DNA of 64,000 nt from Halorubrum sodomense (lineage in GTDB: Archaea > Halobacteriota > Halobacteria > Halobacteriales > Haloferacaceae): the NCBI RefSeq assembly GCF_900111935.1, contig NZ_FOYN01000002.1:372001-436000 (forward strand). Direction: 5' to 3'. Position 1 is the first letter of the stretch; every line of letters begins with the position of its first letter. Both the position numbers and the translations under genes were made by a program. Below the pieces are notes generated by a model, which searched no databases, was not told where the DNA came from, and worked only from the letters and a program-made list of their open reading frames with translations. Of this stretch, positions 14,498-64,000 are shown piece after piece.

Positions 14498-14572
14498 GGG
14501 CCGGGTACGGGACGGAGGGGCAAAAGCGGCGCGTCGGGCGCGGTCGTCGCGGCCGAGCGAACTCCGCTTCCG

Positions 14573-15631: not shown

Positions 15632-15651
15632 GTCGCAAAATTCGCCGGCCG

Positions 15652-17103: not shown

Positions 17104-17171
17104 CGTCTCTCGGTCGGTATGCGACCCGCCGCGTCAAGAGGGTTCGGTCGGGCCGAAACGCGACGTCGGCC

Positions 17172-18557: not shown

Positions 18558-18684
18558 TGAACGGGTGAGTGTTCCCCGGGATCGACTGATAAGCCTTGCT
18601 GAACGAGCCGGATCACGATCCGTATACGTGGATCGAAATGCCTCCTGAGCGGATTTTTTTCGCGGAGAGTATGCGCGAACGTGG

Positions 18685-19398: not shown

Positions 19399-19420
19399 AC
19401 GGATGATCGCGATCGCACAA

Positions 19421-19430
19421 CTATGAATAC
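19421..19430 (-). promoter_or_regulatory. TATA-like box of the HTH-PRTase gene
   Basis: On the minus strand the sequence is GTATTCATAG, ending 22 nt before the ATG at 19398. This spacing fits a leaderless haloarchaeal transcript. It lies just downstream of the 16-bp tandem repeat array at 19459-19522. Confidence 0.5.
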
Positions 19431-19458
19431 GTCGAAGTCGCGTGCGGCGTGAATATCC

Positions 19459-19522
19459 ACGAGCGTGATTTCTCATGAGCGTGGTTTCTCACGAGCGTGA
19501 TTTCTCATGAGCGTGGCCTTTC
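19459..19522. repeat. Four tandem 16-bp repeats upstream of HTH-PRTase gene
   Basis: Units start at 19459, 19475, 19491 and 19507. They alternate between ACGAGCGTGATTTCTC and ATGAGCGTGGTTTCTC, the last being slightly degenerate. The array sits about 30 bp upstream of the TATA-like box of the phosphoribosyltransferase regulator gene. Phased identical sites close to a promoter suggest cooperative binding of a regulator. There are no unique spacers, so this is not CRISPR. Confidence 0.85.
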
Positions 19523-19579
19523 ACGGGGCTGACTCTCCGGGCGACTCCGTCACGGCCGGCGCCCGGTCTGCGCACCGCC

Positions 19580-20035
19580 TCACGCCTCGGGCGCGTCGAA
19601 GAACACCGCCGGCTCGTCGATCGCGATCTCGACGCGGTCGCGGTCGTCGAGGGGGCGCAGGCGAACCGTGAGCGTTCCCGCCGTCTCGGCGGCCGCGCGC
19701 AGCGACGCCAGGTCGTCGCTTCCGAGGTACGTCGGCACGCAGACGGCTACCGCCGCCGCCTCGTCGGTGGCGACCACCAGCCGGTACGCGACCCCGTCCG
19801 CGGCGCCGGCGTACACGTCGACGCCGTCGATCGCGGCGTCGCCGACCGCGTCCAGCGCCGCGTCGAACTCCGACTCGGGCAACAGCACGTCGATCCGGGC
19901 GTCGTCGTCGACGGGATTCACGTCGCCGGGATGCCCCGCGATCGCGGTCCAGCCCCGCTCTCGGTACGCCGCCGCCGTCGACTCCGCGTCGTCCTCGACG
20001 GCTCCCCATCGCGGTCCGGGATCGGTTCCGTTCAC
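19580..20035 (-). CDS. Haloarchaeal hypothetical protein
   Basis: A 151-aa acidic protein with a GTG start (MNGTDPGPRWGAVEDDAEST). It has no transmembrane segment or signal. Recognisable features are only general: RERGWTAIAGHPGDVNPV near residue 26, LLPESEFDAALDAV, and a beta-rich middle with YRLVVATDEAAAVAVCVPTY. I associate this pattern with a haloarchaea-restricted family of unknown role but do not assign a name. It stands alone between the repeat array and the divergent ABC transporter operon. Confidence 0.65.
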   Translation of the reverse strand: MNGTDPGPRWGAVEDDAESTAAAYRERGWTAIAGHPGDVNPVDDDARIDVLLPESEFDAALDAVGDAAIDGVDVYAGAADGVAYRLVVATDEAAAVAVCVPTYLGSDDLASLRAAAETAGTLTVRLRPLDDRDRVEIAIDEPAVFFDAPEA

Positions 20036-46760: not shown

Positions 46761-48989
46761 ATGGTTCGACGAAGCCGCCGGGATCTGCTTCGCGACGCGG
46801 CCGCGCTCGCGACGGTCGGCGGCGGCGCGGTCGGATCGTCCACCGGCGCTCCGTCTCGATCGCGGCTCGAGCCGCCCGAAACGGGCGTCGCCCAGATCGA
46901 CCTCGGCTCGGGCGCGTCGCCGACGGCGTGGACGTCCCGCGGCGGTGGCCCGCACAACGCGGGCGTCGGCTCCGCGGAGTACATCGTCCCCGACTCCGTC
47001 GACGTCGAGTGGCATCATCAGGACCTCCGGACGTACGACCCGGGGCACACCCTCGCGGCCGCCGGTCGCGTGGTGTTCACCGGTCGTCGGCGGCTCGTCG
47101 CGGTGGAGGACCCGAACGGCGACGTCGCGTGGAACCGGCTGCTCTCATCGCCGCCGGTCGCCGCGCCCGCCATCGCGGGCGACCACGTCCTCGTCCCGCA
47201 CGCCGATCGGGTGGCCGCCCACCGGCTGGGCGACGGCGAGCGCGCGCGGTCGATCGAGCTGTCGGCGACGCCCGGCGACCTCGTCGGGGTCGGTGACGCC
47301 GCGATCACGCGGCTCGCGAACGGCGACGTCGTCCGGGTCGACGTCGCGGGAGGGGCCGCCGAGACGGTCGGCTCCGGCGACGGCGAGGCCGAGGGACGCG
47401 TCGCGGTCGACGGGTCGCGGATCGTCGTCGCCACCGACACCGGCCACGTGCGGAGCTGGGGGGGCGACGGCGGCGACGACTGGGAGAACTTCGTCGAGGA
47501 ACGCGTCCGGGTCGCGCCGATAATCGCGGGGGACTACGCCGTCGTCGCCACGACCGTCGGGTCGCTCGTCGCGATCGATCTGGACACCGGCGAGGAGGCG
47601 TGGCGTCACGAGGGCGCTGAGGGGTACTCGGTCCCGCCGGCGCACCTCAACGGGTACATCGTGGCGGCCGACGACCGGTCGAACGTGTTCGGAATCGTCG
47701 CCGGATCGGGCGACGAGCTCTGGTCGAGCACGCTGGACCACTTCGTCTTCTCCGGGCCGAGCCTCGCCGGCAACGCGGCCGTCTTCCTCGACCGCGACGG
47801 AACCGTCCACGCCTACGACTACCAGAGCGGTTCCGAGCAGTGGACCGTCGACACCCCGACCGGGACGCCGGTGAGCGAGATCGTCGTCGGCGCCGCGTCG
47901 CTCGTCGTCCACGGCGACGGGGGCGTCGCCGGGCTCTACGACCCGGCGTCGGTGTCGGCCCGCGAGAGCGTCGCCGCGCTCCAGCGCGCACTCGTCGACG
48001 GCCGGCGCACCTCGCGGCCCGCCGATATCGTCTCCGCGTACCGTGAGGCGGCTTCGGCCTTCGTCGACCGGTCGTACGACGCGGCCGAGCGGCTCGCCGA
48101 CGACGCCCGCGGGACGCTGGAAGAGACGCGGCAGGTGCGCGCCACGGCGCAAGCGCGTATCGAGGAGCTTTCGGCCGAAGTTGCCGCGACGGAAGCGTTC
48201 GATCCGACCGAGAGCGCCGACCGCCTCGCGGCCGCGGAGGACGCGTACGCCGAGGGGGACTACGAGTCGGCGGCGTCGCTGGCGGCGGCGGGGCTCGACG
48301 CGCTCGAACGACGGCGCGCGACCCGGGAGGCCGCGGCCGCGCGGGTCGAGGAGCTGTCGGCCGCGCTGGCGGACAACGCGTCCCTCGTCACTCCCGACGC
48401 CGAGGCGCGTCTCGCGGAGGCCGAGCGGGCGTTCGACCGCGAGGCGTTCGAGGACGCCGAGTCCGCGGCGACCGAGGGGCTCGACGCGCTCAACGCGACC
48501 GTCGAGGCCGCCGCGGAGGCCGACGAGGCGCTCGCGGCGCTGAGCGACGCCATCGACTCGACCCCCGAGAGCGTCCCGGTCGAGGACGTTCGGAGCGCCC
48601 GCGACGAGGCCCGGAGCGCGTACGACGCCGGCGACTACGAGGCGGCGACCGATCTGGCGACGGGGGCGGTGGCCCGACTGCGCGCCCGGCGCGAGGCGGC
48701 GAGACGCGCCCGCGAGGCCATCGACGCGGCGGCCGGCGTGAGCCGCCACGCCGCGGCCGACGTGGTCGCCGAGGTCTACGGGTACGGCGATCAGCTGTCG
48801 TCCGCGCGGGCGGCGTACGACGAGGCCGACTTCGAGCGCGCCCGCGCCGCGGCGGTCGAGGCGCGCCGGACGTACTGGGGGGCGCGGGCCACCGTCGACG
48901 GCACCATCGGCGCCGGGCTGATAACCGGCACGCTGTACATCCGCTACCCGGAGAAGTTCGCGGGGATCGCCGGTAAATTCTCGCGCTGA
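46761..48989 (+). CDS. Tat-exported beta-propeller protein with helical repeats
   Basis: A 742-aa protein. The N terminus has a twin-arginine pattern (RRSRRDLLRDAAALAT) without a lipobox. Residues about 50-400 are a PQQ/pyrrolo-quinoline-like propeller, with repeats such as VAIDLDTGEEAWRHEG and YDYQSGSEQWTVDTPTG. Residues about 400-700 are alpha-helical repeats of the form AYxxGDYExA (DAYAEGDYESAASLAAAGL, SAYDAGDYEAATDLATGAV). A weak hydrophobic segment near the C terminus (TIGAGLITGTLYIRYP) might anchor it. The family is unassigned. It starts the tubulin/Hsp70 cluster, with a TATA-like CTTATTC 22 nt upstream. Confidence 0.72.
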   Translation: MVRRSRRDLLRDAAALATVGGGAVGSSTGAPSRSRLEPPETGVAQIDLGSGASPTAWTSRGGGPHNAGVGSAEYIVPDSVDVEWHHQDLRTYDPGHTLAAAGRVVFTGRRRLVAVEDPNGDVAWNRLLSSPPVAAPAIAGDHVLVPHADRVAAHRLGDGERARSIELSATPGDLVGVGDAAITRLANGDVVRVDVAGGAAETVGSGDGEAEGRVAVDGSRIVVATDTGHVRSWGGDGGDDWENFVEERVRVAPIIAGDYAVVATTVGSLVAIDLDTGEEAWRHEGAEGYSVPPAHLNGYIVAADDRSNVFGIVAGSGDELWSSTLDHFVFSGPSLAGNAAVFLDRDGTVHAYDYQSGSEQWTVDTPTGTPVSEIVVGAASLVVHGDGGVAGLYDPASVSARESVAALQRALVDGRRTSRPADIVSAYREAASAFVDRSYDAAERLADDARGTLEETRQVRATAQARIEELSAEVAATEAFDPTESADRLAAAEDAYAEGDYESAASLAAAGLDALERRRATREAAAARVEELSAALADNASLVTPDAEARLAEAERAFDREAFEDAESAATEGLDALNATVEAAAEADEALAALSDAIDSTPESVPVEDVRSARDEARSAYDAGDYEAATDLATGAVARLRARREAARRAREAIDAAAGVSRHAAADVVAEVYGYGDQLSSARAAYDEADFERARAAAVEARRTYWGARATVDGTIGAGLITGTLYIRYPEKFAGIAGKFSR

Positions 48990-49127: not shown

Positions 49128-52100
49128 ATGCGATACGAGACCCCAGATCAGATCGTCGGTATCGGGGGTGGCGGCAAGGAGCTCGTCTACAAGCTCTTCG
49201 CGCCGACCGCCCTCGACGTCGACACGCCCGCCGATCTCACCGATGACGACCTCCGCACGTGGCTTATCGACGAGGTACTCGAGCCGAAGGGGCTCAGCGC
49301 CAACCGGCACCAACAGATTCGCATGGACGCGTTCGTCGTCGACACGGACACGGACGAGGCGAACGTCGACCGCCCCCGGGTCGACCGGATCAACGAGCTG
49401 CTGGCGGAACGCGAGGACGACCATCCCGACCCGGTCCGCGGTCCCTCTCTCTCCTACGTGAACCTCGTCGAGGACGCGACGACGAAGGCGCGACACCTCC
49501 TCAGCGAGAACAAGGTCCGGCGGGTCAGCGAGCAGACGGGCATCTCCTGCTGGTGGCTCGACGACGAGATGATCGACCCGTACGACGACTTCGGCGGCGG
49601 CGTGTTCCGCCGCCGCGCGCTCAGCAAGGCGCTGTACGGCATGGCGCAGATCGGGACCGCCGATCCGCTCGAAGGGGTCCGCAACTCGGTGTCCAGCACC
49701 AGCGACGTCGCGATGGTTGTCGGGCTCGGCGGCGGCACGGGCGCCGGAACGTTCCTCGATATCGCGAAGACGCTCAAGCGCGACCACGGCTTCCCGGACG
49801 TGACGCTGTTCGCGGTGCTGCCGCACGAAGACGAGGACGACGACCGCGGCGCGAACGCCTACGCCGCGCTCTCCGAGCTGGAGTACCTCTCGTTGACCGA
49901 TCAGAACCTCTTCGAGAGCATCGTCCTCATCCCGCAGCTGTCGGACGCCGACGAGGGCGACTTCGACGAGGCGATCATCCGCTCGATACTCAGCTACTAC
50001 ACCCTTCAGGGGAACGCGCGGAACGAGCTCAGCGTCAAGGGCTCCGGCGGGCCGCCGTCGTTCGCGCCGTTCACCGTCGCGGCTCCGCAGGTGCTCCAGT
50101 ACGAGGGCGGCGTGATCAAGCAGGCGAAGGCGCGGTTAGAGGAGTTCTACGGCAACAGGGAAGAGCTGCTCTCGACCGAGTCGGAGCTCCACGACGAGTT
50201 CGAGTCGTTCCTCGAAACGTACCACGGAGACGGACCGGGGACGGACGTGTACGGCGAGTACAACGGTCGCGGAACGGACTCGCGGTACGGCCTCACTGAG
50301 GAAGAGGTGACCTCGCTCAGCAACCGCATCGACGCCTTAGAAGAACTCGTCAGCCTCCGCGTCCTGCCGAGCATCGGCTGTACGGTCACCGACGAGCTCC
50401 GCGAGGACATCCGAGCCGCCAAGGAGTACGCGGTCGACGCCGCCGACATCGACCCGGACGAGGTCTCCGAGAGCCGTCGAAAGCGGGCGATCGTCAACGG
50501 GTTCCCCGAACAGACCGGCACGGTCGTCACGCCGAACACCGGCGAGGACAAGCCCGAGGACACCCGGCTACTGGCGCTCTACGAGAAGGAGATCGACGCG
50601 ATCGAGCGCCGTCGGGACCTCCTGTGTGCGAAGAACATGCTGAGCGAGCTCGATTCGGTGTCGTTCGACGCCGGCGACGCCACGACCGCCGCCGCGGTCG
50701 CCACGACCACCGACGTCGCCGGCGCGCTCGGCAACGCGCTCAGCGAGGACACTAAGCTGAGCCGGGACACCGGCCTCGAAGGCGACCTCGACGAGCTCGA
50801 CGGCGAGCGCAAGCGCCTCGAGACGCAGCTCCACGACCTCGACGAGCTCGCGGACGCGCTCGAGGCCGAACGCGACGCGCAGCTCGACGAGTGGGTGACC
50901 GCGGTGAGCGACGACGCGGAGACGCTCGCGAACCTCTCGGAGTACGAGACCGAGATCCGGGAGCTGCTCGGCGACCTCGAGACGGCGCTCGACGGCGCCG
51001 CGGGGGTCGCACAGGGTGCGACGTCGACCGACGACATCCCCGCGGAACCCCGCGTCGAGTTCTCGGAGACGCAGTTCGAGCGACTCAACGAGCTCCTGGA
51101 GTCCTGCGGGCTCGCGCCGCTCCGCGGCTCGGCGGTCCGCGACGAGGTCGCGTACCTCTGGCAGGCGAAACGCGAGTTCCTCCGCGACTCGGAGGGCGGG
51201 CTGCTCAGTCGCGGTCCCGACACCGAGGAGCTCCAGCGGAACCACGCGGAGCAGTACCGCGGCGCGCAGCGCAGCGACCTCGACATGGCGTTCATCCCCG
51301 AGTGGGACGAGCGTCCGGAGACGTCCGGGCGCCTTCGAACGACGGAGATCGACCGCCGACTGGATGCCCTCGACGACCTCGACCCGGTCGACGAGATCGC
51401 CGCGTCGGTCCCGTCGTTCCTCGCGGACCGCGAGGTCGACCCCGGCGCGCTGCTCGCCGAGGCCACCCGCGCGTCGCTCGACGATCCCGACCGACTGTCC
51501 GGGTTCGAGATCCCTCGGGCGGACGTCGACGAGCCGGCGATCGCCGACGCCTTCGACGGGGGCGACGTCGAGGCGGCGCTGGAGTCGCTCGTCGCTCCCG
51601 GCGGCGCGGTGTTCGAGACGTTCCACGCGGCGTACCTCGGTGACCTCGAACGCGAGCGCGAGGAGGGGGCCGCTCGCCTACGGGCGGTCGAACGCGAGAT
51701 CGAGTGGGTGACGGCGGCGACGGACCTCCTCGAACGCGGAAGCGGGTTCGCCGGACTGGCCGAGGACGTCATGGACCCCTCGTCGATCTCCGAGGTCGAC
51801 GGCGACGAGCGGGACGAGGGGATGTACGTCACCCGCGCGTCCCCCGACGACCCCGGCGAGCTGCTCAGCAGCGACAACATCGGCGAGACGAACTTCTGGG
51901 CCCGCGACGACAGCACGCTACAGTCCTCGTTACGGTCGTTCACCGAGCGGATCGAGAACCACCTGCTGCCGCTCCGGAACCCGCTCCTCGCCGTTCCCGA
52001 GGAGAATCCGGCGCGCGACGAGTACGACGAGTACCGCGCCGCGATCTCGCTGATGAGCCGCGCGATCGACCAGAACACCAGCTACGGGACCGGAGCGAAA

Positions 52101-52565
52101 CACGCGTTCGACGCCGTCGACGCCATGCTCGGGGACACGCTCGGACAGGTGGACCCGATATACTGGAACCGCGCCCGCTTCGGCGGCGCCTGGGACCTCA
52201 CGCTCACGGTGTTCCTCGGCGGGGTGATGCTTGACAACGTCGACGTGTTCGAGCAGAGCGGGAAGGGGCTGAAAGACAAGTACGAGGCGGAGCTCGGCGG
52301 CGAGCCCGGACGCCACATGATCAACCGACACGCCCACGGAATCGACGGACTGGACGCCGGTCGCGTCGACGGTCACCGGCTGATCGACGACGGGAACGAC
52401 GGCGCGTACCTCTACCGCGCCGCGCTGTTGAACCTCGACGTCGGCGTCGACGACAGGCTCCTCGTGTTGAACAACCTCGGCGATCCGGACGCGCTCAGAG
52501 ACGAACTGCTCGACCGGTACGAGTTCGTCGGGTTCGAGAGCACGCAGGACCTGGGCAACTCGTAA
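49128..52565 (+). CDS. Large tubulin-like GTPase (Tubulin_2-type)
   Basis: A 1145-aa protein. The N-terminal Gly-rich loop is IVGIGGGGKELVYKLF, and the tubulin/FtsZ signature GGGTGAG is at residues 201-207 (VVGLGGGTGAGTFLDIAKTL). Further tubulin-like blocks are LFAVLPHEDEDDDRGANAYA and FTVAAPQVLQYEGG. About 700 additional residues follow: a coiled coil around 540-590 (LDELDGERKRLETQLHDLDE) and a long helical region. FtsZ and CetZ are about 350-400 aa, so this belongs to the separate tubulin-like family that I know as PF13809. The next gene starts six bases after its stop. Confidence 0.85.
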   Translation: MRYETPDQIVGIGGGGKELVYKLFAPTALDVDTPADLTDDDLRTWLIDEVLEPKGLSANRHQQIRMDAFVVDTDTDEANVDRPRVDRINELLAEREDDHPDPVRGPSLSYVNLVEDATTKARHLLSENKVRRVSEQTGISCWWLDDEMIDPYDDFGGGVFRRRALSKALYGMAQIGTADPLEGVRNSVSSTSDVAMVVGLGGGTGAGTFLDIAKTLKRDHGFPDVTLFAVLPHEDEDDDRGANAYAALSELEYLSLTDQNLFESIVLIPQLSDADEGDFDEAIIRSILSYYTLQGNARNELSVKGSGGPPSFAPFTVAAPQVLQYEGGVIKQAKARLEEFYGNREELLSTESELHDEFESFLETYHGDGPGTDVYGEYNGRGTDSRYGLTEEEVTSLSNRIDALEELVSLRVLPSIGCTVTDELREDIRAAKEYAVDAADIDPDEVSESRRKRAIVNGFPEQTGTVVTPNTGEDKPEDTRLLALYEKEIDAIERRRDLLCAKNMLSELDSVSFDAGDATTAAAVATTTDVAGALGNALSEDTKLSRDTGLEGDLDELDGERKRLETQLHDLDELADALEAERDAQLDEWVTAVSDDAETLANLSEYETEIRELLGDLETALDGAAGVAQGATSTDDIPAEPRVEFSETQFERLNELLESCGLAPLRGSAVRDEVAYLWQAKREFLRDSEGGLLSRGPDTEELQRNHAEQYRGAQRSDLDMAFIPEWDERPETSGRLRTTEIDRRLDALDDLDPVDEIAASVPSFLADREVDPGALLAEATRASLDDPDRLSGFEIPRADVDEPAIADAFDGGDVEAALESLVAPGGAVFETFHAAYLGDLEREREEGAARLRAVEREIEWVTAATDLLERGSGFAGLAEDVMDPSSISEVDGDERDEGMYVTRASPDDPGELLSSDNIGETNFWARDDSTLQSSLRSFTERIENHLLPLRNPLLAVPEENPARDEYDEYRAAISLMSRAIDQNTSYGTGAKHAFDAVDAMLGDTLGQVDPIYWNRARFGGAWDLTLTVFLGGVMLDNVDVFEQSGKGLKDKYEAELGGEPGRHMINRHAHGIDGLDAGRVDGHRLIDDGNDGAYLYRAALLNLDVGVDDRLLVLNNLGDPDALRDELLDRYEFVGFESTQDLGNS

Positions 52566-52571
52566 CGACGG

Positions 52572-53990
52572 ATGAATCTCGAAAACGTCCGGATCGGCAA
52601 CCGGAAGCTGTCGGACGTCCTGCTGCTCGTCGGGTCGACGGTCGCGGTCGTCGCGACGGTAACGCCGCTCACGGACATGCTCGTCCGCGCGTGGACGGCC
52701 GAGGGGGTCGGTCGCACCGTGGTCCGGTTCGTCGTCGGCGCGACGCCGCTGACCCTCGAAAGCGCGGTCGTGTTCCCGCTGGGGATCGGCGCCGGACTGC
52801 TCGCGGTGTTCGCGCTCGACCGAACCAAGTTCGTTCAGGCGCTGTTGCTCGCCGCCGCCGCCGGTCCCCTGTTGGCGACGGTGTGGTACAACGGACTGTG
52901 GTTCGGCGGCCGGATCGACTGGGTCGCGAACGCGCCGTGGGGAGCTGCGGGGCTCCTCGTCGGTGCCCTGATCGGAGCCGCGGACAAGGCGGTCGCCGCC
53001 CTCACCGGGCACGACGCGCTCGGCGTCGGCCGCCGCGAGTTTCCGCTGGCGGCCGGCGCGCTGTTCGCGGCCGCCGTCGGGTTCGCGGTCGTCGGCTTCC
53101 TCGACGCGACGCTCTCCGGGACCCCCTCGGCCGCGACCGCCGTCGTCGACCTCGCGGTCTCGGTCGCGTTCGTCGGCTTCGTCGGCTTCCTCATCCAGTA
53201 CCGCGACCGGCGCGACGTCGCGGTGTTGAGCCCGAACCGGAGCGCCGAGACCCTCGTCGTCTGCGGCCTGTTCGCTCACGTCGACGACCGGTACCGGACG
53301 GTCGTCTCCGCGGGAGAGGCCGAGCTGAATCGGCTCTCGTCGAACCTCGCGGCGGGCCGAACGGTGCCGGCCGCGACCGACGAGATCGCGTTCAACGTTC
53401 ACGCCGGGGGGTGGTTCGACAACTGGACCTCGGTCTCGACGTCGGGATACGCGAACCGCCACCTCCTCGACGAACAGGTGGCCCGGGCGGCGGAGTCGAC
53501 CGACGGCGGCCGCGGATCGCTGCTCGCGCACCGGGTTCGGCGCGCCGTCACCCGCGAAACGCCGCTGACGTTCGTCGACCGGCTGCTCACCTTCGACGTG
53601 GTGTTGCTCGCGGTCCCCCTCGACCGAGAGCCGATACGGCGCGCGTTCGACCCCGCGGTCGACGACGACGACGTCGGGGCGGCGGCGTTCCTCGATCGGT
53701 ACCGGCGGTTCGTCGAGGCGACGCGCGGGCGAGACCCGACGGTCGTCGTCGTCGCGACCGGCGGCGAGACCGCGCTGACGTACTTCGAGTCCGTGTACGG
53801 CGGGACGACGATCGACAGCCCCGAACTCAGGACCGAGGTCGCACATCGGCTCGGACTGCTCTGCTCGGGGCTCGGCGAGGACGCGCCGTTCCCGGAGACG
53901 CCGGTCGTCGTCTCACGGAGCGAGGCCACGGCCGTCGATGACGGGTTGGCGGGCGCCGACCGGCTGTGGCGCGCCGTCCGCGACGCCTGA
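52572..53990 (+). CDS. Six-TM protein with degenerate GTPase-like cytosolic domain
   Basis: A 472-aa protein. Six hydrophobic helices occupy residues about 10-215 (e.g. LSDVLLLVGSTVAVVATVTP and AVSVAFVGFVGFLIQY). The cytosolic C-terminal 250 residues recall a P-loop GTPase without the P-loop lysine: ETLVVCGLFAHVDDRYRT in place of GxxxxGKS, GRTVPAATDEIAFNV like a switch I region, then FDVVLLAVPLD and VVVVATGGETA at the place of TKxD. This fold call is an inference by eye. Six bases separate it from the tubulin-like gene, so co-expression is near certain. Confidence 0.6.
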   Translation: MNLENVRIGNRKLSDVLLLVGSTVAVVATVTPLTDMLVRAWTAEGVGRTVVRFVVGATPLTLESAVVFPLGIGAGLLAVFALDRTKFVQALLLAAAAGPLLATVWYNGLWFGGRIDWVANAPWGAAGLLVGALIGAADKAVAALTGHDALGVGRREFPLAAGALFAAAVGFAVVGFLDATLSGTPSAATAVVDLAVSVAFVGFVGFLIQYRDRRDVAVLSPNRSAETLVVCGLFAHVDDRYRTVVSAGEAELNRLSSNLAAGRTVPAATDEIAFNVHAGGWFDNWTSVSTSGYANRHLLDEQVARAAESTDGGRGSLLAHRVRRAVTRETPLTFVDRLLTFDVVLLAVPLDREPIRRAFDPAVDDDDVGAAAFLDRYRRFVEATRGRDPTVVVVATGGETALTYFESVYGGTTIDSPELRTEVAHRLGLLCSGLGEDAPFPETPVVVSRSEATAVDDGLAGADRLWRAVRDA

Positions 53991-54012: not shown

Positions 54013-56001
54013 TCACGCCGCCGCGAAGAACGCGACGGCGGCGAGGACCAGCGCGCCGCCCGCCCCGGCGACGGCCAGGTAGCCTATCGTTCCGAACGCG
54101 GCCGGGGCTGCGAACGACGCCATCAGCGCGACGACGCCGACGAGCAACAGCGGCTTCGCCGCCTCGGGGCCGACGTCGCCCAGCGTCCCCCCTTCCGTTC
54201 CTCCCGTTCGGTCCGGTTCCTCCGCCCCGCCGCCGGTCGGATCGCGGATCTTGAACTTCGTCTCCTCCGACTCCAGCGTTCGGCCGTCGTCCTCGACGGT
54301 CGCGACCGCGGTGTAGAGGCCTCCCTCGTCGTGACCGTACGACCACGTCCCGCCCTCAGCCGTGCCGATCTCGCCCGTTTCGAGAATCTCGACGCTCGCT
54401 CCGTCGACCCGCTCCCCGTCCGCGTCGACGACGGTGAACTCGATGGTCTCGTCGACGGCGATCCGGTCCGTGCTCCGCTCGATCCGGACCGCGGCCTCGG
54501 CGCCCGGGTCCGGGGCGAACGCCCCACCGGACGTCTCGCCGCGAAATCCGTCGGTCGCCGCCTCGGTGCTCCCGTCCGACTCGGCGGCGCTCGTCGCCTC
54601 TCCGCTCCCGCTCCGCCCCCCGTCGTCCCCCGCTTCGGCGGCCGCGTCCCGCTCGCCGCCCGCCGTTCCGTCGTCCCCGTCGGCGTGCTCCCGCACCCTG
54701 ACGGTCGTCGCGGCAGTCCCCGTCGACTCGCCGTGGCCGTCGCGGACGGTCGCCGCGAGCTTCACCTCCCCGGGCGTCGACAGGGTGACTCGGCCGGTGC
54801 CGTCGTCGAGGAAGTACTCGTCGCCGGTGTCCGTCTCCAGCGTGACGTTCGGCACCGGGTTCTCGTCCCCGTCGACGGCGACAACCGAAACGACCTCCCC
54901 GGGATCGACCACCGTCCGGTCGAGCACCAACGAGAGCTCGGTCGGCGCCGGCGCTACTTCGATCGAGACGCTCGCGGCGTGGTACGAGCGGTCTCCGTCC
55001 GTTTTCCGAGCGGTCACGGTCTCTTCGCCGGTCTCCGCCGGTGTCAGGTGACACTCGCCGCGCGTGTCGGTCGTCGCTTCGTCGCCGGCGCCGGACACGG
55101 TCGCTCCCGGTACCGGGTCGCCGTCGGCCGTCACGGCGAACCCGACCGAATCACCGACGGTCGGAGACCGGGTCGCCGCGTCGATCGAGAGCCCGACCGG
55201 CTCTCGCGACGGCGGTTCGACCTCGACGGTCGTTGTCGCCTCGCGGTACCGGTACGCGTCCGTCCGCGACTTCCGCGCGGTGAGGTCCACCGTTCCGGGC
55301 TCGTCGAACGAGACCCGGGTTCGACCGGTCGGTGCCTCGTACCGGCCTCCCCGCGAGGTCTCGACCGTCACGTCCTCGATCCGATCGCCCTCCTCGTCGG
55401 TGACGGTGGCCATCGTCGAGTCGTCGGTCGAGAGCGTCTCGGCGTCGAGATCGAGCGATAGGTCGACGTCGATCCGGTCGACCTCCACCGCGGCGCTGTC
55501 GCTCACGTACGTCCGGTCGCCGTCCGAGCGGTCGACCGTCACCGCGTACGTGCCCGCCGCGTCGAACTCGACGGACGCCTCGCCGCGGCTGTCCGTCGTT
55601 TTCGGGTCGATCCGGGGTGCGCTCACGTCGACGTCGGGGACCGGTTCGCCGGCGCCGTCGGTCGCGCGCACCGTCACGGGATCGAAGACGGTCGTCGACG
55701 TCGGCTCCACCGCTGCGCTCAGGCGGACCACGTCCGGGTCCGTCGAGCCGGACCCGGTACCGCTTTCGCGGTCGCCTGACGGGTGTTCCGCGGTCTCCGA
55801 CTCGATGGCGTCGACGGCATCCTGAATGCGGTACAGCCGCTTTCTCGCCCACTCCTTCTCGTCTTCCGGGTACTTGTCGGGCTGGTACTTGGCCCGGGCC
55901 TTCATGCTCGCCCGTTTGATCTCGCGGTCGCTCATCTCCGGCGAGACGCCCAGCCGGTCGTAGGGGTTGTCCGCCATCGGCTCGAAGTCGAACGAGACCA
56001 T
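54013..56001 (-). CDS. J-domain protein with Ig-like repeats and C-terminal TM hairpin
   Basis: A 662-aa protein. The J domain is at residues about 11-68 (NPYDRLGVSPEMSDREIKRA), but the HPD triad reads Q40-P41-D42 in ARAKYQPDKYP. Residues about 95-450 carry about four Ig-like/Big_1-type modules (VGLSIDAATRSPTVGDSVGF and SLVLDRTVVDPGEVVSVVAV). An acidic linker and a fifth module follow, and the C terminus has two helices (LLLVGVVALMASFAAPA, YLAVAGAGGALVLAAVAFF). There is no signal peptide, so the J and Ig parts should face the cytoplasm. It is divergent from the Hsp70 gene. ATG 55977 is an alternative start. Confidence 0.8.
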   Translation of the reverse strand: MVSFDFEPMADNPYDRLGVSPEMSDREIKRASMKARAKYQPDKYPEDEKEWARKRLYRIQDAVDAIESETAEHPSGDRESGTGSGSTDPDVVRLSAAVEPTSTTVFDPVTVRATDGAGEPVPDVDVSAPRIDPKTTDSRGEASVEFDAAGTYAVTVDRSDGDRTYVSDSAAVEVDRIDVDLSLDLDAETLSTDDSTMATVTDEEGDRIEDVTVETSRGGRYEAPTGRTRVSFDEPGTVDLTARKSRTDAYRYREATTTVEVEPPSREPVGLSIDAATRSPTVGDSVGFAVTADGDPVPGATVSGAGDEATTDTRGECHLTPAETGEETVTARKTDGDRSYHAASVSIEVAPAPTELSLVLDRTVVDPGEVVSVVAVDGDENPVPNVTLETDTGDEYFLDDGTGRVTLSTPGEVKLAATVRDGHGESTGTAATTVRVREHADGDDGTAGGERDAAAEAGDDGGRSGSGEATSAAESDGSTEAATDGFRGETSGGAFAPDPGAEAAVRIERSTDRIAVDETIEFTVVDADGERVDGASVEILETGEIGTAEGGTWSYGHDEGGLYTAVATVEDDGRTLESEETKFKIRDPTGGGAEEPDRTGGTEGGTLGDVGPEAAKPLLLVGVVALMASFAAPAAFGTIGYLAVAGAGGALVLAAVAFFAAA

Positions 56002-56247: not shown

Positions 56248-57849
56248 ATGACTTCGATCGGCATTGACTTGGGGACGACGAACAGCGCCGCTTCGACGCT
56301 CATCGGCGATCGCGAGGAGATCTTAGACATCGAGGGCGACCGGACCATCCGCTCCGTCGTCTCCTTCGAGCCGGGAGACGACGAGGTCATCGTCGGCAAC
56401 ATGGCCGCAGACCTGATGGAGCGCCATCCGGACCTCACGGTCTCGTCGATCAAGCGACACATGGTCGACGACGACCACACGGTCACGATCGACGACGACA
56501 GCTACGAGATGACGGAGTACGCGCCCGAGGAGATCTCCGCGCTCATTCTGAAGAAGGTCTTGGCGGGCGCCGAGGGCTCGCTCGGCGAGGCGCCCGACGG
56601 CGCGGTTATCACCGTCCCTGCCGACTTCCCCGAGAACGCGCGCGCCGCGACCCGGCGCGCCGGCGAACTCGCGGGCGTCAACGTCCTCAGACTCCTCCCG
56701 GAACCGAGCGCGGCCTGCGTCGCCTACGGGCTGCGCGACCGCGACGAGGACATCGAGCGGGTCGCGGTCTACGACCTCGGTGGCGGCACTTTCGACATCA
56801 GTCTCGTCGACGTCTCTCACGAGGACGGGTTCTACGACGTCGTCGCCACCGAGGGCGAACAGGAGCTCGGGGGCGACGACTTCGACGAGGCGCTCGCTCA
56901 GTGGATCGCCGAACAGATCGAAGACGAGACGGGCGTCGATGTCACCGACGACAGAGGGGCGTTCCTCCAGCTGAAGGGGAAAGCCAAGGACATCAAAGAG
57001 CAGCTTTCCTCCCGGAACACCGCGACGTTCCGTGACTCCGGGACGATCTCGGGCGAGAACGTCGACATCGAGATCTCCCGCGAGCAGTTCGAGGAGATCA
57101 CGGCCGACCTCGTCGAGCGGACCGTCGAGTTCAGCGAGACGGCCCTCGAAAGCCAGGACATGTCGCCGGACGACGTCGACACCGTCCTGCTCGTCGGCGG
57201 GTCGACGAAGATCCCCGCGGTTAAGGAGGCCGTCGAGGAGTTCTTCGGACAGACGCCCTCCCAGGAGGTGAACCCCGACGAGGCGGTCGCCATCGGCGCC
57301 GGCGTGTTCGCCGACTCCATCGACCCGAAGAAGGCGCTCGAGGGAGACGACGACGACGAGGACCGTGGCGGTCTCCCCTCGGACGTGCGCGTTAGCAACG
57401 TCGTCCCCGACGACCTCGGGATCGAACTCGCTTCTGGGAAGATCGATACCATCATCGAGAGCAACTCGAACCTCCCGACGATGGAGCGCAAAGAGCGGGA
57501 GTACACCACGGTCGAGGACAACCAGACGCGGGCGCTCATCAAGCTGTATCAGGGCGAAGGTGACACGGTCGACGACGGCGACCTCGAACTCAAAACCGAG
57601 TTCGTCTTAGAGAACATCCGCGAGGCGCCGAAAAACGAGCCGGAGATCACGGTTCAGGTCAAGCTCGACGAGGACGGCGTGTTGAGCGCACACGCTTGGG
57701 ACGAGTCGGTCGTCGATGGTGACCTGATCGACCCCGACGACGCCGACGAGGTCGCTGACGGCGAAGCGCACATCGACATGAACCCGTCCGGCGAGTCTGA
57801 AAAGCTGAGCGTGGAGGAGATACGCGCGCTGCTGCCCAGGATCGCCTAA
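56248..57849 (+). CDS. Lidless Hsp70/DnaK-like chaperone
   Basis: A 533-aa Hsp70, about 100 residues shorter than standard DnaK. The nucleotide-binding domain is intact: SIGIDLGTTNSAASTLIGD, VITVPADFPENARAATRRAG, LLPEPSAACVAYGL, VAVYDLGGGTFDISLVDV, and VLLVGGSTKIPAVKEAVEEF. The substrate-binding beta domain is present (DDLGIELASGKIDTIIESNS). The helical lid is missing: the protein ends SGESEKLSVEEIRALLPRIA. It sits between J-domain and GrpE-like genes and is distinct from the housekeeping dnaK, which haloarchaea carry with grpE and dnaJ elsewhere. Confidence 0.9.
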   Translation: MTSIGIDLGTTNSAASTLIGDREEILDIEGDRTIRSVVSFEPGDDEVIVGNMAADLMERHPDLTVSSIKRHMVDDDHTVTIDDDSYEMTEYAPEEISALILKKVLAGAEGSLGEAPDGAVITVPADFPENARAATRRAGELAGVNVLRLLPEPSAACVAYGLRDRDEDIERVAVYDLGGGTFDISLVDVSHEDGFYDVVATEGEQELGGDDFDEALAQWIAEQIEDETGVDVTDDRGAFLQLKGKAKDIKEQLSSRNTATFRDSGTISGENVDIEISREQFEEITADLVERTVEFSETALESQDMSPDDVDTVLLVGGSTKIPAVKEAVEEFFGQTPSQEVNPDEAVAIGAGVFADSIDPKKALEGDDDDEDRGGLPSDVRVSNVVPDDLGIELASGKIDTIIESNSNLPTMERKEREYTTVEDNQTRALIKLYQGEGDTVDDGDLELKTEFVLENIREAPKNEPEITVQVKLDEDGVLSAHAWDESVVDGDLIDPDDADEVADGEAHIDMNPSGESEKLSVEEIRALLPRIA

Positions 57850-57858: not shown

Positions 57859-59517
57859 TCACCCGTCTCTTTCGGCCGCACCCGCCTCGTCGTTCCCGTT
57901 TCGCTCGTCGTCGCCCTCCGATTCCGATCGCGTTTCGCTCCGCGTACTCTCGCGGTCGGCGGCGGCTCGATCGGCTTCGACCTCGCTTCGGGCGGACGCC
58001 GCTTCGGTTTCCCGGTCCTCCGGCTTCGCGTCGTCGCTCGCCTCGTCGGTTCCGGCACGTTCGCCGCTCTCCTCGCTCGCCTCGTCGGTTCCGATACGCT
58101 CGTCATTCCCGTCGCTCGTCTCGTCGGGCTCGGTCGCCGCCTCGTCCTCGGGTTCAGACGCGTCGCCGGGCGCCGTTCCGCTCCCGTCGCTGATGACGAC
58201 GTTCGCCTTCTCGCGCACCTCGCCTTCGATTCGGAATCCGGGCTGTTGGGTGCTGACGACCGTCCCCTCCGGACGGTGGTCCTCGGCCCGCGTCACGGCG
58301 CGGTGCGCGTCCCTGTCGAACGACTCGCCCTCGTCCGGCTCGATCAGGCTGACGCCCTGCGCCCGGAGTACGTCGTGAAGGTCATCTAAGGCGTATTCCG
58401 CTGCCTCTTGGACGGCGTCGGGATCGTCGTGGGAGACGGCGCCGACGAGATCCGAGCGCACCTCCGAGATGACGGGACCGACGAGCGACTCATGGCCGTA
58501 GGTCTGTAGCTCGTCGATCTGATCCTCCTTCCGGTCCATCAGCGAGTTCAGCTGCGAGACCTCCTGTTCGTAGTCGGCCTCCAGCTCTTCCACCCGCTCG
58601 TCGAGGGCGGCGACCCGCTCTTCGAGTTCCGCGATGTACGCCTTGCGACGGCGGAACACCTCTTGGCTCAGGCTGGTGATGCGCTCCACGTCGTCCATCG
58701 AGTCCGGATCGATTCGGCGCACCTTCCGCTCCAGCCGGTCGGGGTCGTGCCGGCTCGGATTGATCTCCTCGTGGCGCTCGCCGACGACGTCGTCCGCCGC
58801 GGCCGCCGCCCAGGCCTCCAGCCGCTCGGCGGAGAGTATCGTTCCGAGCTGCCACTCGCCGTCGTCTCCGTCGCCCGCGTCGCTCGACCCGCCCGTGTCG
58901 GTCGCGTCCGTCGCGTCCGTCGCGCCGTCGGCGGTGTCGGCGTCCGTCGCGCCGTCGGCGGTGTCGGCGTCCGTCGCGTCTCCGTCCGGTCCCGACTCGG
59001 CGGTGCCAGCGACGGTCGTCTCGGCAACGTTCCGTTCGGAGCCGTCGGCGTCGCTCCCTCCGCCGATGCCGTCCCGATCGTCGCTCTCGACGGATCCGTC
59101 GTCCGCTGTCTCTCTGTCGTCGCCCGCTCCTCCGGACTCGGGTCCGTCGGCCGACTCGTCGGCGTGAGTCTCGTCGGAATCGGGATCTCCGTCGGCAGCG
59201 GACTCGCCGGCGTCTCCGGTTTCGTTTTCGGTAGCGGACTCGCCGGCGTCTTCCGCTTCGGTCTCGTCATCGACGTCCCCCGACGCCGCCGTCGCCACCG
59301 TCTCGTTCGGTCCTGACCCGTCCGGCTTCTCGGCGTCGACCGCGTCCGGCGTCGACTCCGCCGCGTCGGTCGCACTCCGTCCCGCTCCGCTGTTACCGGC
59401 TCGTTCGTCGTCGCTGTTCGGCGCCGATGTCCCCCCGCTTTCTCCGCTCGTCTCGTCACCGTTCTCTCCGGTCATGACGAGGCGGACGAGTCGGGTGATG
59501 TACGTTCGGATTCCCAT
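57859..59517 (-). CDS. GrpE-like nucleotide exchange factor with long acidic arms
   Basis: A 552-aa protein. Residues about 280-340 are a coiled coil (ELEERVAALDERVEELEADY) and about 342-441 a GrpE core: HESLVGPVISEVRSDLVGAV, LHDVLRAQGVSLIEPDEGES, FDRDAHRAVTRAEDHRPEGT and QQPGFRIEGEVREKANVVIS. The N-terminal 215 and C-terminal 110 residues are acidic low-complexity with tandem repeats (DADTADGAT, TDEASEE). Normal GrpE is about 200 aa. It converges with the Hsp70 gene, ending 10 nt after it. ATG 59475 is an alternative start (MTGENGDETS). Confidence 0.8.
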   Translation of the reverse strand: MGIRTYITRLVRLVMTGENGDETSGESGGTSAPNSDDERAGNSGAGRSATDAAESTPDAVDAEKPDGSGPNETVATAASGDVDDETEAEDAGESATENETGDAGESAADGDPDSDETHADESADGPESGGAGDDRETADDGSVESDDRDGIGGGSDADGSERNVAETTVAGTAESGPDGDATDADTADGATDADTADGATDATDATDTGGSSDAGDGDDGEWQLGTILSAERLEAWAAAAADDVVGERHEEINPSRHDPDRLERKVRRIDPDSMDDVERITSLSQEVFRRRKAYIAELEERVAALDERVEELEADYEQEVSQLNSLMDRKEDQIDELQTYGHESLVGPVISEVRSDLVGAVSHDDPDAVQEAAEYALDDLHDVLRAQGVSLIEPDEGESFDRDAHRAVTRAEDHRPEGTVVSTQQPGFRIEGEVREKANVVISDGSGTAPGDASEPEDEAATEPDETSDGNDERIGTDEASEESGERAGTDEASDDAKPEDRETEAASARSEVEADRAAADRESTRSETRSESEGDDERNGNDEAGAAERDG

Positions 59518-61212: not shown

Positions 61213-62877
61213 ATGACATCCGGCCCAGCGATCGAGCTCATTCCCCCGAACATCTCCAGCGACACCGGCATCGAACGCTCGGGCGACGGGGCGGTCGACG
61301 ACGACCCGATCCCCCTCCTCGGGAAGTCCACCGGCGGCGGGTCATCGCTCGTCACGACCGACGACTATCCGTACGTCACCGTCCACGCCAACGTCGACAC
61401 GCCGGGACCGGGGGTGGAGCGGTTCGGTAAGAACAGCTTCGCCGTTCGGGAGGACGGCGAGCCGACCGACCTCGAACGCGTGACGTTCCTCGGCGACGAG
61501 CTCGATCTCGTCTTCGTCTTCGACGACACGGGGAGCATGTCCGACGAGATCGAGGGCGCGAAGGAGGGAGTCAGGTTCCTCACCGAGGAGATAGACGCTC
61601 GGGAGATGGACGCGCGCTACTCGCTCGTGACGTTCAAAAACGATCCCACGGTCCGGACCGCGTTCACTCGCGACGCGGAGACCGTCACCTCGCACGTCGA
61701 CGACCTGTACGCCAGCGGCGGCGGCGAGATCCCCGAAGGGAACTTCGACGCGATCGAACGCGCGCTCGACCTCGACTACCGGCCGGACGCCCAGCGCGTG
61801 ATGGTCGACATCACCGACGCCCCCTCCCACTTCGACGGAGACGGCAGCGACGTCTCCGACTACACCTTCGACGACGTGGCCGAGGACCTCCGTGCGTCCG
61901 GGGTGACGTTCGTCTCCGTCGCGCCGGACGTCGAGGACCGCCGGTCGAGCGCGAAGTCGCTGACCTCCGCGGTCGGCGGATTCTGGACGGACATCTCCGA
62001 GACGCGCATGGGCCGAACGGACAACTTCGAGTCGGTGCTCAGGCGGATCACGGACCTCCTCACCTCGACGTACGAGATCGAGTTCCACACCTGTACGCCG
62101 CCGGGTACCGCCCGCGAACTCGAGGTCGAGTTCGACGGGGACCGCGGGACCGACGCCGCGACGGCGACGCTGTCGGTGCCGGAGCGGTTCGACCTGCCGC
62201 CCGAGTGCGCCGAGTCCGACCCCGAGCCGGTCGACTCGCGGGAGACCGCCCTGTTCCTCGACGTCGACCGCAACGCCCTCCCAGCGGGCGAGACGGTGAC
62301 GGTCACGGTGCGGTCCGCGGACAACGACTTCGTGGTGGGCGCGGCCGTCGAGGCGGCCGACGAGCGCGCGGAGACGAACCGCGCCGGGCGGGCGGAGCTC
62401 GAACTCTCCGACCCCGGTCCGCAGACGATCACCGCGACCGCGCCCGACGGCGACGCGACAGAGACGATCACGGTCGACATCGAGGCGCCGTCGGACGGCC
62501 CGGCGAGCGACATCGAACCGTCGCCTGGCGGCATCGAGACGTCTCCAGAGGGCCTCGAAACCGCTCCCGGCGGTATCGAGACGTCCCCCGGCGGTACCGA
62601 GGGAACCGACGACGGGGGAAGCGACACGGAGGGGGCGCTCGTCGTCGAGCCGAGCCGGTGGCGCACCGACGTCGGCGAGGAGGTGACGTTCACCGTTCGG
62701 AACCTCGACGGCGATCTGCTAGCCGACGCGACGGTGGAGGCGGCCGGCGAGACGAAGGCGACGAACCGCGCCGGGAACTGCTCGTTCGCCTTCGAGGAAC
62801 CGGGGACGGTGACCGTCACTGCGACGCGAGACGACATGGACCCCGACGCCATCGACATCGACATCGAGACGGCGTGA
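61213..62877 (+). CDS. vWA-domain protein with two Ig-like modules
   Basis: A 554-aa protein. The von Willebrand A domain is at residues about 95-295. The MIDAS loop is D104-D-T-G-S108 in VFVFDDTGSMSDEI, with VMVDITDAPSHFDGDG supplying a later metal ligand. Two Ig-like modules (LFLDVDRNALPAGETVTVTV and EPSRWRTDVGEEVTFTVRNL) flank a repeat linker at about residues 435-463. No signal peptide or transmembrane helix is seen, so it should be cytoplasmic. The Ig-like modules are the same type as in the J-domain protein of the cluster. Confidence 0.85.
   Translation: MTSGPAIELIPPNISSDTGIERSGDGAVDDDPIPLLGKSTGGGSSLVTTDDYPYVTVHANVDTPGPGVERFGKNSFAVREDGEPTDLERVTFLGDELDLVFVFDDTGSMSDEIEGAKEGVRFLTEEIDAREMDARYSLVTFKNDPTVRTAFTRDAETVTSHVDDLYASGGGEIPEGNFDAIERALDLDYRPDAQRVMVDITDAPSHFDGDGSDVSDYTFDDVAEDLRASGVTFVSVAPDVEDRRSSAKSLTSAVGGFWTDISETRMGRTDNFESVLRRITDLLTSTYEIEFHTCTPPGTARELEVEFDGDRGTDAATATLSVPERFDLPPECAESDPEPVDSRETALFLDVDRNALPAGETVTVTVRSADNDFVVGAAVEAADERAETNRAGRAELELSDPGPQTITATAPDGDATETITVDIEAPSDGPASDIEPSPGGIETSPEGLETAPGGIETSPGGTEGTDDGGSDTEGALVVEPSRWRTDVGEEVTFTVRNLDGDLLADATVEAAGETKATNRAGNCSFAFEEPGTVTVTATRDDMDPDAIDIDIETA
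62515..62598 (+). repeat. Four tandem 21-nt units in the vWA protein linker
   Basis: Each unit encodes seven residues (EPSPGGI, ETSPEGL, ETAPGGI, ETSPGGT). It connects the two Ig-like modules and looks like a flexible Pro/Gly spacer. The codons differ between copies, so the repeat is selected at protein level or old. Confidence 0.75.
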
Positions 62878-62933: not shown

Positions 62934-64000
62934 TCAGTCGCCGCGCCGTGCGACTGCGACGCCGCCGGCGGCGAGTAGTCCGACGAGGAGGACCTGTCCG
63001 AGCACCACCGTCGCGAACACGGCCGCTCCCGGCTCGGCGGTGAACGCGTACGCGACGCCGACAGCCGCGGCGGCCGCCACGGCGCCGACCGCCACGCCGC
63101 CGGCGATACCGGTCGCCAGCCACTCCCGCCGTCGTCGAGTGTCCGCCGCGGGGTCGACGACGTCGATCCCCTCGGTGACGTGTTCGAAGACGACCTCGAG
63201 GTACTGGTCGGCCGGTTCGTCCGCGACGAGCCCCGCCGCGTCGATCCCGTCGGCTTCGTACCACTCGTTCAGCCGGTCGCGGAGGAACTCGTCGTCGACC
63301 TCGTCGATCAGCTCCCCGGCCGCCTCGATCGACTCCCGCATCGAGCTGAGCTGCCCGGCGCTTTTCGGATCGAGGCTGTCCGGGCCGCCTCCGGCCAGGT
63401 ACGCAAGGGGTTTGAACGCGTCGCGGACCCCACCGACCCTCGAGACGGCCGCCGCCGCTCCGACGGCGGCGATCCCGCCGACGACGGCGAGGAGCCCCCA
63501 CAGCGGGACGAAGAGCGGCTGTACCGGGGTCAACGCGTCTATTGCGACTCCCGGGAGGGCCCGGACGGTGACCGGTTCGGTGAGCGCGGCGACGAACGCG
63601 CCGCCGAGCCCCGACCACGCGAGGTAGCCGAGCGCGGCGAGAGACAGCACCGCAGCCGTCGCGGCCACGACCAGCGCCTTCGAGGTCCGCTCGAGCCGGT
63701 ACGGCGGTGCGGGCCGCAGCGTCGGCGCCCGCTCGGAGGCCTCGGAGACGGCGGTCGCGAGCGACTCCTGCCACCGTCTCGGGAACACCTCGCCGTCGAC
63801 CGAGCGCTCCCGTACCTCGCGGAACTCCCGCTTGGCGGCGGCGGCGCTGTCGGCCAGCCGGGCGAACGCGATCCGGTCGCCGGTCTGCGCGCGCGGCTCC
63901 ACGTCGGTGTAGTTGAGGGAGCTCGGCATCACGACCACGTCGACGCCGTCGAGGAAATCCGCCCGACCGCTTCCGGAGATGGCGACGGTCCCGTCGAATC
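62934..64000 (-). CDS. Four-TM membrane protein, truncated by the window edge
   Basis: About 355 residues are visible. The frame is open to 64000, so the N terminus is missing. The part before the membrane (FDGTVAISGSGRADFLDGVD, then VVVMPSSLNYTDVEPRAQTG) is an unidentified alpha/beta domain. Helices are near VVAATAAVLSLAALGYLAWS, FVPLWGLLAVVGGIAAVGAA, GIAGGVAVGAVAAAAAVGVA and VVLGQVLLVGLLAAGGVAV. A 115-residue soluble helical segment separates helices two and three. It converges with the vWA gene and is likely part of the same cluster. Confidence 0.6.
   Translation of the reverse strand, partial: FDGTVAISGSGRADFLDGVDVVVMPSSLNYTDVEPRAQTGDRIAFARLADSAAAAKREFREVRERSVDGEVFPRRWQESLATAVSEASERAPTLRPAPPYRLERTSKALVVAATAAVLSLAALGYLAWSGLGGAFVAALTEPVTVRALPGVAIDALTPVQPLFVPLWGLLAVVGGIAAVGAAAAVSRVGGVRDAFKPLAYLAGGGPDSLDPKSAGQLSSMRESIEAAGELIDEVDDEFLRDRLNEWYEADGIDAAGLVADEPADQYLEVVFEHVTEGIDVVDPAADTRRRREWLATGIAGGVAVGAVAAAAAVGVAYAFTAEPGAAVFATVVLGQVLLVGLLAAGGVAVARRGD

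What the first reader, a model, noticed from the sequence alone, without database searches (positions are those of the whole stretch)
54013..56001. J-domain protein with QPD instead of HPD
Codon CAG at 55884-55882 puts Gln at residue 40, giving Q-P-D. The HPD histidine is essential for Hsp70 ATPase stimulation in characterised J proteins. Either this partner Hsp70 accepts QPD, or the J domain is now a docking module. The protein is tail-anchored by two C-terminal helices.
Basis: partly seen in the sequence, partly recalled or inferred. Interest (0 to 1): 0.7.

Follow-up and report, generated by a model that had tools for sequence, protein, structure and literature searches.

The report
Haloarchaeal J protein lacking HPD histidine
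A salt-loving archaeon carries a membrane-anchored chaperone helper in which the supposedly indispensable histidine is replaced, the same histidine is missing in its whole small family, and the neighbouring Hsp70 is altered at the matching contact, so it may hold its Hsp70 in place without switching it on.

Summary
In detail: the J protein at 54013-56001 (-) reads Q-P-D at residues 40-42. It is not a local error. The nine family J domains found, in six gene clusters of one halobacterial family, read N-P-D (7), Q-P-D (1, this one) and L-P-D (1); proline and aspartate are always kept. All J domains outside this cluster type that I read carry HPD. The neighbouring Hsp70s match contact by contact: they keep the partners of the D and the P (DnaK R167 and P419, 6 of 6), but the interdomain linker, which the histidine touches in DnaJ-DnaK, is eroded in 6 of 6. 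Hsp70s paired with HPD J proteins keep it. Where the J motif decays further, or no J is found, R167 is mostly E, D or A (one exception). Reading: a J domain that docks without firing, held at the membrane by two C-terminal helices; inferred, not shown. The cluster (tubulin-like protein, dead GTPase-like membrane protein, vWA, Hsp70, GrpE, J fused to Ig-like repeats) resembles the bacterial DO-GTPase/GAP1-N2 systems of Kaur et al. 2020; membership is not established. A new variant of a known kind (type IV J proteins).

The parts
54013..56001 (-). J protein, 662 aa: J domain, four to five Ig-like domains, C-terminal hairpin of two hydrophobic helices
55786..55968 (-). J domain (residues 12-72)
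   Evidence: PF00226 match 12-66; helices 13-17, 25-38, 46-72 in the model
55876..55884 (-). Q40-P41-D42 in place of HPD
54694..55731 (-). four Ig-like domains (residues 91-436)
   Evidence: model with high pLDDT; PF13620 match over its cut-off
54247..54447 (-). fifth Ig-like domain (residues 519-585; YtkA-like match)
   Evidence: PF13115 match over its cut-off; low-confidence part of the model
54019..54156 (-). C-terminal hydrophobic helix pair (residues 616-661), predicted membrane anchor
   Evidence: hydropathy; model helices at low pLDDT
56248..57849 (+). lidless Hsp70, 533 aa; keeps R167, P419 and T199 equivalents; linker VLLLD reads VRVSN; Q378 reads F
   Evidence: PF00012 E 6.9e-118
57859..59517 (-). 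GrpE-like protein, 552 aa, with long acidic flanks
   Evidence: PF01025 E 4e-18, residues 292-443
49128..52565 (+). large tubulin-like protein, 1145 aa
   Evidence: PF13809 E 5.7e-10
52572..53990 (+). membrane pseudo-GTPase, 472 aa, directly after the tubulin gene; intact relatives have GPxxSGKS, DYAGE and TKxD, this copy none of them
61213..62877 (+). vWA protein with Ig-like repeats
   Evidence: PF25106, PF00092 and PF13620
59688..61130 (+). membrane protein of unknown role, 480 aa
   Evidence: weak PF16156 match only; one hydrophobic stretch seen by eye in the translation
62934..64000 (-). C-terminal part of a protein of roughly 970 aa with C-terminal hydrophobic helices that continues past the window; lies downstream of an intact GTPase gene outside the window (position of GAP1)
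46761..48989 (+). PQQ-type beta-propeller protein, 742 aa; possible cluster member
   Evidence: PF13360 E 1.9e-25; a propeller gene also lies in the Haloplanus plasmid cluster

Best explanation
This is a dedicated, membrane-anchored J-like adaptor that docks its own lidless Hsp70 without triggering it in the usual way. SHOWN from sequence: the family has lost the HPD histidine (N, Q or L) but always keeps P and D. The paired Hsp70s keep the residues those two touch in DnaK, keep the ATPase residues, have lost the lid, and have an eroded interdomain linker, the element the histidine touches. INFERRED: P and D still place the J domain on the Hsp70 interface, while the missing histidine and altered linker uncouple docking from ATP hydrolysis. 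The J protein would then hold an ATP-state Hsp70 at the membrane beside the Ig-like array, the tubulin-like protein and the GTPase components, with the local GrpE setting the nucleotide cycle. Release or hydrolysis would be triggered by another event, such as ligand binding to the Ig-like repeats.
For: (1) Of nine family J domains in six clusters, the motif is NPD in 7, QPD in 1 and LPD in 1; P and D are kept in 9 of 9 (sequences). (2) In six of six partner Hsp70s, R167, P419 and T199 are kept; Q378 is kept in five of six (F here); the V/I-x-L-x-D linker is kept in none; D393 is kept in two of six. (3) Hsp70s paired with HPD J proteins keep the linker: four aligned (L110, L158, L146, L159) and a fifth read by eye (L160). 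E. coli HscC, whose partners read HPE, has VILTD and R. (4) Contacts known for DnaJ-DnaK: H33 to the L391 backbone, P34 to P419, D35 to R167 and Q378 (PMC8215388, passages). In simulations H33A keeps binding but blocks the stimulating state, while D35A displaces the loop (PMC13012618, passages). (5) Where the motif is further decayed (S-D-D or D-G-D, L075/L109), R167 is E, P419 is E or K and the linker is gone; where no J domain was found beside the Hsp70 (L108, L169), R167 is E or D. (6) J and Hsp70 genes are neighbours in all six clusters.
Against: No binding or ATPase datum exists. The six Hsp70s form one clade (100/99 support), so loss of His with linker erosion may be a single event. Asn and Gln amides could still hydrogen-bond the L391 backbone, so stimulation is not excluded. 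Two other docking contacts are also lost in the window pair (K26 to M; K48 to Y with D477 to K), which argues against a DnaJ-like pose. One Hsp70 (Halocatena, L167) keeps R although no J gene is annotated in its 19 kb. Linker alignment in gappy, Gly-rich stretches is uncertain.
Confidence: 0.45

Rival explanations
1. Compensated stimulation: Asn or Gln makes the hydrogen bond to the linker backbone that His normally makes, and the re-tuned linker of the dedicated Hsp70 lets this pair fire normally.
For: Eight of nine replacements are the amides N or Q, which can donate a hydrogen bond (the chemistry is recalled). The linker changed together with the motif. ATPase residues are kept. HPE is tolerated by a diverged Hsp70, HscC (PMC13254874; DjlB/C HPE seen).
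Against: QPD abolishes stimulation where tested (PMC13254874). One family member is LPD, which cannot donate that bond. Most of the conserved linker, whose mutation abrogates activation in DnaK (PMC8215388), is missing. HscC itself keeps the linker.
Confidence: 0.27
2. Pseudo-J inhibitor: the protein binds the housekeeping DnaK or the cluster Hsp70 and blocks canonical J proteins, as Pam16 does to Pam18.
For: The own genome has five HPD J proteins and a canonical DnaK. Some clusters have two J proteins.
Against: Where two family J proteins occur, neither is HPD, so there is no active partner of the Pam18 kind. Helix II contacts used for DnaK binding are lost (Y25S, K26M).
Confidence: 0.1
3. 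Relaxed selection: the J domain is a fossil and the Ig-like repeats and anchor are the working part.
For: The more decayed lineage L075/L109 and the no-J clusters show that the J contact can be lost. Q is found in one genome only.
Against: P and D are invariant in 9 of 9, as are several other positions (A1 columns K43 and R47, i.e. K49 and R53 here). The partner residues R167 and P419 are kept. The decayed lineage itself still has dN/dS about 0.14 over the J protein.
Confidence: 0.12
4. Sequencing error or a strain-specific mutation of an HPD protein.
For: CAG differs from CAC (His) by one base; no second genome with this exact protein was found.
Against: All family relatives also lack His; the Hsp70 interface has changed accordingly.
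Confidence: 0.02

Closest known systems
Type IV (HPD-less) J-domain proteins, e.g. Pam16/Tim16, DnaJB13
   Different: Here only His is lost, P and D are kept, the gene sits beside its own altered Hsp70, and the host is an archaeon. The examples in the passages read are eukaryotic: DKE/DKS in Pam16, HPL in DnaJB13.
E. coli DjlB/DjlC with HscC
   Same: Tail-anchored J proteins with an altered motif (HPE) and a dedicated, diverged Hsp70 encoded nearby (PMC8215388, passages; sequences).
   Different: HscC keeps an intact linker (VILTD) and DjlB/C keep H and P; the neighbouring genes are not tubulin or vWA genes.
GAP1-N2 type DO-GTPase systems (Kaur et al. 2020, PMC7159879)
   Same: Tubulin-like protein with long helical part, vWA proteins, membrane GTPases, Hsp70 with GrpE, and DnaJ fused to beta-sandwich repeats (section 29 read whole).
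   Different: Ig-like rather than FNIII repeats; no Pfam match to GAP1; DO-GTPase match absent in this genome and weak in relatives; lidless Hsp70 and non-HPD J. 'HPD' does not occur in that text.
Accessory lidless Hsp70 with HPD membrane J protein in Haloarcula hispanica pHH126
   Same: Adjacent lidless Hsp70 and J gene, N170P and PEPxAAC signature.
   Different: HPD and linker intact; no Ig-like repeats seen.

Membership tests
J-domain superfamily | J fold with helices II and III and loop | tested here: met
   PF00226 over its cut-off; model
J-domain superfamily | HPD motif in the II/III loop | tested here: not met
   QPD
J-domain superfamily | stimulates Hsp70 ATPase | not testable with these tools
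   no biochemistry available
Type IV (HPD-less) J proteins | clear J domain with replaced HPD | tested here: met
   the definition is from PMC13254874, which speaks of non-conservative replacement
Hsp70 | NBD with ATPase residues (K70, T199, D201) | tested here: met
   PF00012
Hsp70 | conserved hydrophobic interdomain linker ending in D | tested here: not met
   VRVSN for VLLLD
Hsp70 | SBD-alpha lid | tested here: not met
   533 aa, match ends at profile position 487 of 599; alignment
GAP1-N2 DO-GTPase system | DO-GTPase of the TRAFAC clade | tested here: inconclusive
   PF19993: 0 matches in the own genome; 5 of the 20 aligned members of the pseudo-GTPase family match PF19993 weakly, best E 0.0017, and 1 of 20 matches PF19975; an intact P-loop protein with DYAGE lies just outside the window and has no Pfam match
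GAP1-N2 DO-GTPase system | GAP1 protein | tested here: not met
   no Pfam match for the candidate in the right place; it could be too diverged for the models
GAP1-N2 DO-GTPase system | tubulin or Hsp70/GrpE theme with vWA and repeat-DnaJ fusion | tested here: met
   repeats are Ig-like, not shown to be FNIII
PADLOC defence systems | match to a defence model | tested here: not met
   0 matches for 9 cluster proteins

The most novel reading that the evidence does not exclude
A conserved, co-evolved 'dock without fire' J-Hsp70 pair: the J domain keeps the docking residues P and D, drops the trigger His, and its Hsp70 gives up lid and linker. Hsp70 is thereby turned from a folding machine into a membrane-held ATP switch inside an archaeal tubulin/GTPase/vWA system. 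The halobacterial series HPD, xPD, xxD, no J is a natural stepwise dismantling of the J-Hsp70 contact.
Probability: 0.35. Interest if true: 0.75.

Novelty: new variant of a known kind. Interest (0 to 1): 0.5.

Why it matters
A 2026 review calls it of special interest, and unknown, whether J proteins with replaced HPD compete with functional J domains or recruit Hsp70 without stimulating it (PMC13254874, passages). Here is a small natural family in which His alone is lost while P, D and their Hsp70 contacts are kept, and each cluster has its own Hsp70 gene. That makes the question testable with one purified pair, with HPD and more decayed pairs from close relatives as natural controls. It also links archaea to bacterial tubulin/Hsp70/GTPase systems proposed to act in conflict.

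Tried and rejected
Sequencing error or local mutation: rejected, as the family lacks His. A claim that Q40 is conserved: rejected; Asn is the family state and Q is seen once. My first idea (notebook) that the decayed L075/L109 J domains have no motif at all: corrected, since in the alignment to DnaJ they read S-D-D or D-G-D, so D35 is kept and H and P are lost, while R167 is E.

Viral contigs: no relative. The structure of the pseudo-GTPase from a two-row alignment was useless (mean pLDDT 34). The fold search of the J protein returned complement, macroglobulin and other Ig-like chains by long poor alignments (rmsd mostly near 38) and adds only that the repeats are beta-sandwiches. Codon rates between L101 and L107 J proteins are high (49% identity) and were not used.

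Full report
OBSERVATION. The - strand ORF 54013-56001 encodes 662 aa. Codon 40 is CAG at 55884-55882 and the motif is Q-P-D. PF00226 is matched just over its cut-off (28.1 against 27.8 bits; 32.8 bits in the genome scan). The own genome (3.03 Mb, 9 contigs) has six PF00226 matches, and the other five read HPD. The window's genus is probably Halorubrum: genome G141, given as same genus, has a contig of 117,216 bases, the length of the plasmid NZ_CP034691 of Halorubrum sp. BOL3-1, and both hold the same tubulin match at 4827.

ANATOMY. An AlphaFold2 model from three sequences gives J helices at 13-17, 25-38 and 46-72 with QPD in the II/III loop, four Ig-like domains at 91-436 (most blocks above pLDDT 80, the fourth lower), a long disordered stretch, a weaker fifth Ig-like domain at 519-585, and two C-terminal helices at 616-630 and 638-661 (the last parts at low pLDDT; mean 67, pTM 0.34). 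Hydropathy supports the two C-terminal segments. I saw no obvious signal peptide by eye, so the Ig-like array is probably cytoplasmic (inference).

FAMILY. A protein search of 148 genomes of the same family and a profile search of 391 genomes of the class agree. In one search, seven places in five genomes score 110-119 bits; the next best scores 52 bits and is HPD (G023). A sixth genome, G069, was seen only; its contig matches the MAG record JAHENP010000050.1, Haloferacaceae archaeon. A phylum draw of 392 genomes at a stricter limit (1e-13) gave only the own genome. The six clusters hold nine family J proteins: window Q; G088 N and L; G069 N and N; G035 N and N; G054 N; G009 N. P and D are kept in 9 of 9. 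Four are tail-anchored (window, L069a, L088a, L161) and five are not. More distant Ig-repeat relatives in G089 and G143 (L109, L075) have four J domains reading S-D-D (3) or D-G-D (1), plus a second, more decayed repeat reading YPD. Adjacent lidless Hsp70-J pairs that read HPD occur in G023 and G045 (one genus) and in three near-identical Haloarcula-type loci (L146, L159, L160).

COUPLING WITH THE NEIGHBOURING HSP70. A DNA pattern for the PEPxAAC signature hit 9 of 391 class genomes: five of the xPD genomes and four of the HPD genomes just named. I aligned the Hsp70s to E. coli DnaK. The known contacts are H33 to the backbone of linker residue L391, P34 to P419, and D35 to R167 and Q378 (PMC8215388, passages; also PMC13012618). 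In the six xPD partners R167, P419 and T199 are kept 6 of 6 and Q378 5 of 6 (F in the window). The linker is eroded 6 of 6: VRVSN in the window, and Gly-rich with I-L/F-x in the rest; D393 is kept in 2 of 6. In the HPD partners the linker is V/I/P-x-L-L/I-D (four aligned; the fifth, L160, read). In L075/L109 the first Hsp70 has R167E, P419E or K and no alignable linker; a second copy has R167A and T199W. In two plasmid clusters with Hsp70 but no J domain found (L108 of G141, of which I read 1-19900 and 95000-117216; L169 of Haloplanus rubicundus pCBA1112-01, eight proteins searched) R167 is E and D and Cys2His2-like fingers sit at the linker. Against the pattern: the Hsp70 of Halocatena marina (L167) keeps R with no J gene annotated in 19 kb (I ran no J profile there). 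E. coli HscC, partner of the HPE proteins DjlB/DjlC, keeps VILTD, R and P. The six xPD Hsp70s are one clade (100/99) with the window copy branching first, so these are few independent events.

OTHER CONTACTS. Of the DnaJ residues named in PMC13012618 (Y25, K26, H33, D35, F47), the window J keeps only D35: Y25S, K26M, H33Q, F47L. K26 is lost in 9 of 9 xPD proteins and kept as K or R in the HPD ones aligned; Y25 is lost in the xPD proteins and also in L110/L158. K48 is Y or H in the nine, and in the window Hsp70 the residue aligned with D477 is K. Docking, if it occurs, must therefore rest on a partly new surface.

MECHANISM. Simulations report that H33A leaves J-domain binding unchanged but prevents the stimulating state, whereas D35A displaces the loop (PMC13012618, passages). 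A family that loses H but keeps P, D, R167 and P419 is what one expects of a J domain selected to dock and not to trigger. Steps shown: sequence conservation and loss. Steps inferred: binding, lack of stimulation, membrane recruitment, and signalling to the rest of the cluster. An adapted but still firing pair remains possible, since 8 of 9 replacements are N or Q.

SETTING. The genes around are a large tubulin-like protein, a membrane protein directly after it, vWA, GrpE-like and Hsp70. The membrane protein belongs to a family whose members follow the tubulin gene in other halobacterial loci; I aligned 20 of 34 hits. A motif search found GxxxxGKS with DYAGE in 12 of 20 and neither in 8 of 20, the window copy among the 8. 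An intact GTPase-like membrane protein (GASRSGKT, DYAGE) lies just outside the window on the same contig at L007:3855-5600, followed by a protein of about 970 aa whose end is at window position 62934. This layout resembles the DO-GTPase/GAP1-N2 systems of Kaur et al. 2020, including 'DnaJ fused to FNIII repeats' with Hsp70 and GrpE (PMC7159879, section 29 whole; passages), which that paper says are present in a few archaea. Pfam support is weak or absent, so I claim likeness, not membership.

LITERATURE. QPD is stated to abolish stimulation and HPE to be the only tolerated change; the role of replaced motifs is called open (PMC13254874, passages). Passages of PMC7289447 support the R167/D393/D481 network. 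Full-text searches combining J-domain, HPD, QPD, haloarchaea and related terms listed no paper that I could recognise as describing this family; I read listings and the papers named, not all papers listed.

VERDICT. Observation confirmed, interpretation partly supported, new variant of HPD-less J proteins with a matched Hsp70. Interest 0.5: few independent events and no biochemistry, but an unusually clean natural test.

Noticed in passing
window 52572-53990: Membrane protein after the tubulin gene is a pseudo-GTPase: relatives in other halobacterial tubulin loci have P-loop, DYAGE and TKxD motifs, this copy has none.
   Followed up: partly
L007:3855-5600 (G000:C8:437854-439599), outside the window: Intact GTPase-like membrane protein (GASRSGKT, DYAGE) in the same cluster, possible partner of the pseudo-GTPase.
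   Followed up: partly
L169:1994-3742 and L108:15501-17204: Hsp70s on haloarchaeal plasmids with Cys2His2-like zinc fingers in place of the interdomain linker and no J domain found nearby.
   Followed up: partly
L109:5081-7315 and L075:5415-7670: Second Hsp70 copy with T199W and G10R and a long C-terminal extension: probably a dead pseudo-Hsp70.
   Followed up: no
window 56248-57849 (Hsp70 C-terminus) and relatives: By eye, the lidless Hsp70s of both HPD and xPD clusters end in a short motif L-P-x-[ILV] close to the last residue, a possible docking tail (sequences).
   Followed up: no
window 61213-62877: The vWA protein carries Ig-like repeats matching the same Pfam family (PF13620) as those of the J protein.
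   Followed up: no
L168:8992-13656 (Methanohalobium evestigatum pMETEV01): Tubulin-like gene directly followed by a relative of the GTPase-like protein on a methanogen plasmid, so the module is not confined to Halobacteria.
   Followed up: no
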